From Caldilineaceae bacterium (GTDB lineage Bacteria > Chloroflexota > Anaerolineae > Caldilineales > Caldilineaceae): a stretch of DNA of 64,000 bases. The translations under genes and the position numbers were made by a program. How positions within the stretch are numbered: position 1 is the first letter of the stretch; each line of letters opens with the position of its first letter. Positions 48,812 through 50,999 of this stretch are shown here, in pieces. Below the pieces are notes generated by a model, which saw only the letters and a list, made by a program, of their open reading frames with translations, ran no database searches and was not told where the DNA came from. Location: positions 1 to 64,000 of the forward strand of contig JAPOVP010000083.1 in NCBI GenBank assembly GCA_026708085.1. The letters are read 5' to 3'.

Positions 48812-49039
48812 ATGCGTATAACCCTGACGATAGACGATGACGTGCTTGCGCTCGCACGAACTTTGGCGGATTACGACGGTTGCAGCCTCGAAAGTGCGAT
48901 TTCCGAGTTGGCCCGGCGAGGTTCCAAAGGAATCGAGACCCTGAAAGTCGACGAAGACATCCCTTCCTTTCGCGTCGCTCCTGATGCTGAGCCGGTAACA
49001 AACGAGGATGTAAGGACAGCCCTTAGCGACTGGCCGTAA
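48812..49039 (+). CDS. VapB-type ribbon-helix-helix antitoxin-like protein, no toxin seen downstream
   Basis: MRITLTIDDDVLALARTLADYDGCSLESAISELARRGSKG; ATG at 48812. Confidence 0.75.
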   Translation: MRITLTIDDDVLALARTLADYDGCSLESAISELARRGSKGIETLKVDEDIPSFRVAPDAEPVTNEDVRTALSDWP

Positions 49040-49040
49040 A

Positions 49041-49390
49041 CGCGCTCGTGAACGCATACAAACGCAAGCAAACTCTTGTCAACGCTCGCAGACTCTCATG
49101 AACGCATACAAACGCAAGCAAACTCTTGTCAACGCTCGCAGACGCTCGTGAACGCATACAAACGCTTGCAAGCTCTCGTGAACGCTCGCAGACTCTCATG
49201 AACGCATACAAACGCAAGCAAACTCTTGTCAACGCTCGCAGACTCTCATGAACGCATACAAACGCAAGCAAACTCTTGTCAACGCTCGCAGACGCTCGTG
49301 AACGCATACAAACGCTTGCAAGCTCTCGTGAACGCATACAAACACAAGTAAACTCTTGTCAACGCTCGCAGACTCTCGTGATCTCTCGTA
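49041..49390. repeat. Hierarchical tandem array: 10-bp unit, 50-bp unit, 150-bp higher-order unit
   Basis: Decamers aacgcataca/aacgcaagca/aactcttgtc/aacgctcgca/gactctcatg repeat with no indel over about 34 units; order ABCDE ABCDE' AFGDE | ABCDE ABCDE' AFG AB'CDE''. Confidence 0.95.
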
Positions 49391-49763
49391 TTCTCTTGCC
49401 CGACACTCTCACTAGCCGACCTGTACCAGCGACCCTACACCGTCGCCAGAACCGGGAGAATGAAAGACCTCGTTCATTCAACCCTCCCGGCGCTCATGAA
49501 AGATCGCTATCACACGAATTTGCTCTCGCCGTACCGTTCAATCGCCCGCAAGGTATTTCCGGCCCAAATTGAGGACCCACTTCCTGATTTTTCCAACATT
49601 GACGAGAAGGTTCTTTCCCTTTAGAATGACGCAGGCTACGCAGCAACCATGACCGCCAATTGCCATCACTAAGCCAGACGACAACGTCCCAGATTGCCCC
49701 TGATAGTGACGAATTGCAAAGGCAGTGGCGGCGAATCCCGCAGGCAACACAACAGAGGCTTCT

Positions 49764-50999
49764 ATGACTGGTCCATTCCGCCTTGCCAATGAAGTCGACA
49801 CAACCGGTTTCGGTGACACCGGAATGCGCCTCGGCGACCTCGACGGCGACGGCGAGTTGGAAGCGGTATTCTTCCAGGCCCGCGACTGCCACATCCCCCG
49901 CATGTCCGCCGGCGGCTACCGCCACGAGAAACAGGTGCACTGCGTCACCGCCATGAAGCTCGACGGCGACGTCATGTGGCAGGAAGGCGCCCCCCTCGGT
50001 ACCGGCCACTGGGCCATGCACGAAGTCGCCGCCGCAGTCAGCGACATCGACGGCGACGGCAAGCAAGAAATCGTCTACGTAACCGAGCGCGACGGCCGCA
50101 GCTACCTCAGAATCCTCGAGGGCGATCGCGGCTACTACCGCAAAGAGGTCGAGACCGGCCCCAACTGCGTACTCCAGCTCTGCGACATTCGCGGCCTCGG
50201 CGCCAGGCGCGACATCCTCGTCTCCACCTTCGTCAACCCCATCTACATCTACGACGACGACCTGAACTGCCTCTGGAACTGCCACTTCTACGGCGGCGCC
50301 GGCCATTCTCACGACTTCTACGACATTGACGGCGACGGCAAGGAGGAGGCCTTCATCGGCTACTGCTGCGTGCGCGCCGATGGCCTCAAGATCTGGTGGC
50401 GGCCCGATCTGGAGCCGCACCTCGAAGAGATGACACGCGCACCCCACGTCGATCACCTGCACGTCCACGACGTCGACGAAGACGGCAGGCCCGAGCTGCT
50501 CATGGTAGCCGGCAAAGACCTGGTCGTCCTCGACGCTGCCACCGGCGAAGACCGCTGGATCTTCGAAGGCACCCACATTCAGACCTGCGCCGTGGGCAAA
50601 TTCCTGCCCGACATGGAAGGGCAGCAGCTCTTCGTCACAGAGCGCCGCCTGCACGGCGAAGATGCCCACATCGGCTTCCGCGGCTACCTCGTCGACTGCA
50701 ATGGCAACGAGATCTGGCGCATGGAGAAGGCCGGTTATGGCCGCACGATCCGGCTGGCCGGCGCCGACGCCGATGTCATCTTCGCCGAGTGCCAGGGCAA
50801 AAAGCCCATGCTCATCGACGGGCACGCCAACATCATCCAGGAACTGGATATGCCGCTGCATACCTACGCCGAAGACCGCTTCGACGACGGCGACACCGGC
50901 GTGCGCGCCGTCTTCACGATCGCCGATACCAACGGCGACGGCAAACTGGAACTACTAGGCTACAACCGCACGCGCCTGTGGCATTGGGTGCAGGATTAG
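49764..50999 (+). CDS. FG-GAP/VCBS repeat protein (DxDGDG calcium-binding loops)
   Basis: MTGPFRLANEVDTTGFGDTGMRLGDLDGDGELEAVF, VSDIDGDGKQEIVYV, FYDIDGDGKEEAFIGY, HVHDVDEDGRPELLMV; no signal peptide. Confidence 0.85.
   Translation: MTGPFRLANEVDTTGFGDTGMRLGDLDGDGELEAVFFQARDCHIPRMSAGGYRHEKQVHCVTAMKLDGDVMWQEGAPLGTGHWAMHEVAAAVSDIDGDGKQEIVYVTERDGRSYLRILEGDRGYYRKEVETGPNCVLQLCDIRGLGARRDILVSTFVNPIYIYDDDLNCLWNCHFYGGAGHSHDFYDIDGDGKEEAFIGYCCVRADGLKIWWRPDLEPHLEEMTRAPHVDHLHVHDVDEDGRPELLMVAGKDLVVLDAATGEDRWIFEGTHIQTCAVGKFLPDMEGQQLFVTERRLHGEDAHIGFRGYLVDCNGNEIWRMEKAGYGRTIRLAGADADVIFAECQGKKPMLIDGHANIIQELDMPLHTYAEDRFDDGDTGVRAVFTIADTNGDGKLELLGYNRTRLWHWVQD

What the first reader, a model, noticed from the sequence alone, without database searches (positions are those of the whole stretch)
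49041..49390. Nested 10-bp / 50-bp / 150-bp tandem array placed immediately after an orphan VapB-like stop codon
The array is built of decamers with no indel for about 34 units. Labelling them A=aacgcataca, B=aacgcaagca, C=aactcttgtc, D=aacgctcgca, E=gactctcatg, F=aacgcttgca, G=agctctcgtg gives ABCDE ABCDE' AFGDE, repeated once with a 20-bp deletion. So 5 decamers make a 50-mer and three 50-mers make a 150-bp higher-order repeat. A strict 10-bp register is close to one helical turn, so bound proteins or bends would stack on one DNA face. It begins one nucleotide after the antitoxin TAA at 49037-49039, where a VapC toxin would be expected.
Basis: partly seen in the sequence, partly recalled or inferred. 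Interest (0 to 1): 0.72.

Follow-up and report, generated by a model that had tools for sequence, protein, structure and literature searches.

The report
Strand-oriented decamer repeats upstream of promoters
The nested 10/50/150-bp array is real and sits where relatives carry a toxin gene; it belongs to a repeat family scattered through one genus of mostly uncultured Caldilineaceae bacteria and, between genes that run the same way, it always points with them, which hints at a role in ending stray transcription rather than in binding the neighbouring antitoxin.

Summary
The array exists exactly as described: 34 decamers in perfect register, ABCDE ABCDE' AFGDE, then a second copy short of 20 bp. 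VapB is a true orphan: five relatives carry an intact 144-aa VapC at this spot, and the array replaces it from about the fifth codon. The decamer family, (T/C)(A/G)CGAG(A/C)GTT, is dispersed in all 17 genomes of the genus and at control level in 29 other genomes of the family. The genome richest in it has no VapB match. Spacing averages about 10.1, not 10.5, so sites do not stay on one DNA face. The surprise is polarity: in 22 of 22 independent co-directional gene pairs the array reads AACNCTC on the coding strand, and promoter-like sites of the next gene lie between array and gene. On that strand arrays are C-rich, G-poor and weakly structured. Best guess: Rho-loading boundary elements that stop read-through. 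Nearly as likely: neutral minisatellites tolerated in one orientation. The window's own array fails the canonical 11-13-nt cytosine spacing, and there are no expression data.

The parts
48812..49039 (+). Orphan VapB-like antitoxin gene, 75 aa plus stop
   Evidence: Weak Pfam VapB_antitoxin match, below cut-off; orthologous to vapB of intact vapBC pairs in five relatives
49040..49050 (+). Probable relic of the vapC 5' end between the VapB stop and the clean decamers
   Evidence: Comparison with GTGACCGCGCTACTGGATGTC at the start of vapC in G008 and G007, and with the longer relic in G006
49051..49390 (+). Decamer array, 34 units, nested 50-bp and 150-bp repeats; AACNCTC on this (coding) strand, GAGNGTT on the - strand
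   Evidence: polarity of the family
49599..49627 (+). Promoter-like site TTGACG-17-TAGAAT between array and FG-GAP gene
   Evidence: 10 of 12 consensus matches; the same site is recognisable at the orthologous place in G001, G006, G015 and G012
49725..50999 (+). FG-GAP repeat protein gene, first gene of the next unit, followed by a family-5 solute-binding protein gene
   Evidence: Pfam FG-GAP_3, and SBP_bac_5 for the next gene; synteny

Best explanation
The array is a locally amplified member of a genus-specific family of dispersed, polar decamer repeats that lie between transcription units, as a rule upstream of the next unit's promoter. Shown: dispersal, polarity relative to transcription, C>G and weakly structured composition on the coding strand, length change in the decamer register between relatives, and replacement of vapC. 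Inferred: RNA reading through from upstream carries (AACNCUCNNN)n, an unstructured C-rich, G-poor stretch that loads the termination factor Rho, so stray transcription stops before the next promoter; in the window it would close off vapB read-through in front of the FG-GAP/transporter genes. Inferred too: the 10-bp register and the 50/150-bp nesting come from repeated slippage or unequal exchange, not from a need for helical phasing.
For: 22 of 22 independent co-directional loci have AACNCTC on the coding strand, p = 4.8e-7. Promoter-like sites between array and next gene: 15 sense against 1 antisense; upstream of the array 10 against 8. Coding-strand C minus G +0.147 against 0.005 in control intergenic DNA, mean MFE per 80 nt -11.7 against -20.7, rut-like windows 0.49 against 0.28, and 0.001 on the other strand. 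C>G composition, lack of structure and spaced cytosines are how rut sites are recognised (PMC6407284; PMC9160355). The genome encodes Rho. Intrinsic terminators are rare in array loci (2 of 22) and controls (3 of 52). Next genes are of unrelated function and often typical operon heads: rpsL, znuA, fusA, solute-binding proteins.
Against: The window's array, with exact 10-nt spacing, scores zero under a strict 11-13-nt cytosine-spacing rule. About 18 of 43 loci are divergent, where no upstream unit ends; there the target would have to be antisense or pervasive transcription. The structural asymmetry is explained by base composition alone. No transcript data exist here.
Confidence: 0.38

Rival explanations
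1. A neutral or selfish minisatellite family without a function. It spreads between operons, grows by slippage, and survives only in the orientation whose transcript is weakly structured, because the other orientation is purged or never inserted.
For: Nested 10/50/150-bp growth and length change between relatives; unrelated downstream genes; copy number ranging from 2 to 275 hits per genome; it replaced a dispensable toxin gene; indel-free register not beyond the flank rate.
Against: Complete polarity in 22 of 22 loci needs strong selection or a strand-biased insertion process that has not been identified; no mobile-element partner was found.
Confidence: 0.35
2. A DNA-level element: phased binding sites for an unknown protein upstream of promoters (regulator or nucleoid protein), polar because it has to face RNA polymerase.
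For: Arrays lie upstream of promoters, pointing to the nearer gene in 14 of 18 divergent loci; GAG and GTT positions are the best conserved.
Against: Spacing is 10 with some 11 (mean about 10.1), so the DNA face is lost over long arrays; downstream genes share no function.
Confidence: 0.15
3. The array is an operator or titration site for the orphan VapB.
For: Adjacency; VapB-type proteins bind DNA (general knowledge); VapB still looks constrained in array-bearing genomes (dN/dS 0.26 for G000-G001).
Against: Arrays abound in genomes without VapB (G009, G014) and at unrelated loci; in G005 and G006 VapB is deleted or broken while the array is kept, longer than here.
Confidence: 0.02

Closest known systems
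REP/BIME elements of enterobacteria
   Same: Dispersed intergenic repeats, often in tandem mosaics; BIMEs are reported to act as transcription terminators and to cause transcriptional attenuation (PMC2965389)
   Different: BIMEs are palindromic units in alternating orientation; this family is a non-palindromic decamer in a single orientation, fixed relative to transcription
Rho utilisation (rut) sites
   Same: C-rich, G-poor, weakly structured on the RNA strand; regularly spaced cytosines (PMC6407284)
   Different: rut sites are not known to me as a repeat family; spacing here is 10 nt rather than 11-13
Bacterial minisatellites (VNTRs)
   Same: Nested tandem units that change in number between relatives
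   Different: Dispersed over many loci of a whole genus with complete polarity relative to co-directional genes
VapBC type II toxin-antitoxin module
   Same: VapB orthologous to the VapB of intact pairs in five relatives, at the same place
   Different: vapC is absent here; the array is not part of the module

Membership tests
Rho-dependent terminator (rut site) | C>G, weakly structured RNA on the transcribed strand | tested here: met
   C-G +0.147 against 0.005; MFE per 80 nt -11.7 against -20.7 in controls
Rho-dependent terminator (rut site) | Cytosines spaced every 11-13 nt over 78 nt | tested here: inconclusive
   Window array 0; family mean 0.49 of windows against 0.28 in controls and 0.001 on the other strand
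Rho-dependent terminator (rut site) | Transcript ends that depend on Rho | not testable with these tools
   No expression data; only the presence of a Rho gene was shown
REP/BIME | Palindromic units in alternating orientation | tested here: not met
   78 clusters, none of mixed strand; decamer not palindromic
Operator of VapB | Occurs only together with VapB | tested here: not met
   G009 and others have arrays but no VapB match
Intact VapBC module | PIN-domain VapC directly after vapB | tested here: not met
   No VapC trace in the window's locus; intact in five relatives, PIN domain in the G008 copy
Helically phased DNA sites | Spacing that keeps one DNA face (about 10.5 bp on average) | tested here: not met
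   548 x 10, 73 x 11, 7 x 9

The most novel reading that the evidence does not exclude
A bacterial genus has evolved a modular, expandable repeat family whose decamers, with a companion roughly 9-nt-periodic module, act as one-way transcription insulators in front of operon promoters, with Rho affinity tuned by gain and loss of 10-nt units: a repeat-built rut platform.
Probability: 0.3. Interest if true: 0.7.

Novelty: new variant of a known kind. Interest (0 to 1): 0.5.

Why it matters
The best-known dispersed bacterial repeats (REP/BIME) are palindromic, and what most such repeats do is debated. A non-palindromic decamer family with 22-of-22 polarity relative to transcription, confined to one genus and lying in front of operon promoters, is a clean case in which a transcription-boundary role can be tested against neutral spread. 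The locus is also a natural experiment in toxin-gene loss with antitoxin retention.

Tried and rejected
VapB operator: rejected, arrays abound without VapB. Helical-face stacking: not maintained. Structured RNA: z-scores of +3.15 and -2.47 lose significance against a null that permutes decamer columns and keeps the repeat; no Rfam family. Repeat protein: the 104-aa minus-strand ORF was not taken further. Replication-strand orientation: the GAG strand lies on the locally G-rich strand 32 to 12, but this is confounded by the repeats themselves, and gene polarity is complete whatever the skew. General intergenic strand bias: nearly absent in controls. Element tied to the preceding gene: weakened, since many loci are divergent. 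Hidden genes or tRNAs in wide divergent gaps: no tRNA in them and only low-scoring ORFs. Family as an assembly artefact: rejected. Selection on register: no support. Intrinsic terminators: rare in both sets, so not informative. Literature on Caldilineaceae tandem repeats or on the companion module sequence: nothing found in the held library.

Full report
Observation. Its self-similarity is far above anything else in the window. The VapB stop is at 49037-49039. The first bases after it look like a relic of the vapC start rather than array.

Where it lies. The order upstream gene - vapB - (vapC or repeats) - FG-GAP gene is kept in most genomes of the genus. Five relatives have an intact 144-aa VapC overlapping the vapB stop; the G008 copy carries a PIN domain. 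In G000, G001, G005 and G006 vapC is replaced by a decamer array, in G010, G012 and G015 by other repeats that include decamers or the companion module, in G013 it is missing without repeats; G009 and G014 lack both genes. The tree of flanking proteins suggests several separate losses, although G003 (vapBC intact) falls inside the array-bearing clade. VapB stays open in most of these genomes, dN/dS 0.25-0.48 on few substitutions, but is broken in G006 and mostly deleted in G005.

What the array is. DNA and pattern searches show a dispersed family, consensus (T/C)(A/G)CGAG(A/C)GTT, in all 17 genomes of the genus: 967 hits of a two-decamer pattern against 71 for the reversed control. In 29 other genomes of the family there are 4 hits against 7 in the control. 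A stricter three-decamer pattern also found a few single matches in unrelated phyla, which I did not follow. Three genus members are single-contig chromosomes, and two of these hold many arrays. Elsewhere the decamers are often embedded in composite units of about 102-139 bp with a TCTGAA...GGATG-type module, themselves in tandem. The window's array is the pure-decamer form, and its length differs between close relatives while the register is kept.

Polarity. After merging loci with homologous flanking genes, 55 independent loci remain. In 22 of 22 co-directional gene pairs the GAG strand is antisense to both genes. In divergent regions 14 of 18 arrays point, in the AACNCTC sense, to the nearer gene; three loci are convergent. 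Control intergenic DNA has almost no strand bias. Local GC skew, a proxy for replication strand, is a weaker and confounded correlate. Promoter-like sites lie between array and next gene on the sense strand (15 against 1) but show no bias upstream of the array, so the array is probably outside the next gene's transcript in those loci. In the window a site with 10 of 12 consensus matches stands at 49599-49627 and is recognisable in several relatives. Next genes have unrelated functions, many of them typical operon heads.

Mechanism. On the coding strand the arrays are C-rich, G-poor and weakly structured compared with control intergenic DNA. These are the features by which Rho utilisation sites are recognised (PMC6407284; PMC9160355). 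Rho is encoded, and intrinsic terminators detected by a simple scan are rare in both array and control loci. I therefore favour a one-way transcription boundary that loads Rho on read-through RNA. This is inferred, not shown. The window's own array, spaced at exactly 10 nt, fails the 11-13-nt rule as I coded it, and divergent loci need the further assumption that antisense or pervasive transcription is the target. A neutral minisatellite tolerated only in one orientation is nearly as likely. Structural asymmetry beyond composition is not significant under a repeat-preserving null, and the lack of indels is not significant given the flank rate.

Limits. Gene calls come from a hexamer model trained here; missed small genes could shift some intergenic classes. 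Orthologous loci were merged by protein similarity of flanks. Nearly all loci were found through the decamer pattern itself. There is no expression evidence.

Noticed in passing
L178, L180, L192, L143 (G012, G010): Tandem arrays of composite units of about 102-139 bp, each with decamers, a GGATG/GATGGGCTG-type module and, in some units, a 12-bp palindrome GAACTGCAGTTC, upstream of genes.
   Followed up: partly
L012, L019, L042: A second decamer family, GTCGGGTNAA, next to the main one, on the same strand; it too reads C-rich on the opposite strand.
   Followed up: partly
L178, L192: Downstream of the array, sequence that by eye resembles the C-terminal part of an ISAs1-type transposase, apparently decayed.
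   Followed up: no
L010, L012, L014, L017, L140 and others: Several arrays stand close to contig ends of short-read assemblies, as expected of repeats that break assembly, so copy numbers in drafts are lower bounds.
   Followed up: no
window 48812-49039: VapB remains open with dN/dS about 0.26 (G000-G001) although both lack vapC, which may mean a retained role such as repression or a second partner; few substitutions.
   Followed up: partly
L222 (G006): A decamer array lies upstream of the ribosomal protein S12 gene, after a very long co-directional gene (possibly rpoC, not checked).
   Followed up: no
L029, L036, L040, L043, L062: Single matches of the three-decamer pattern in records named Acidobacteria, Streptomyces, Bacteroidales, Myxococcales and Schlesneria; more than chance would predict for this pattern, so perhaps mis-binned contigs, transfer or convergence.
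   Followed up: no
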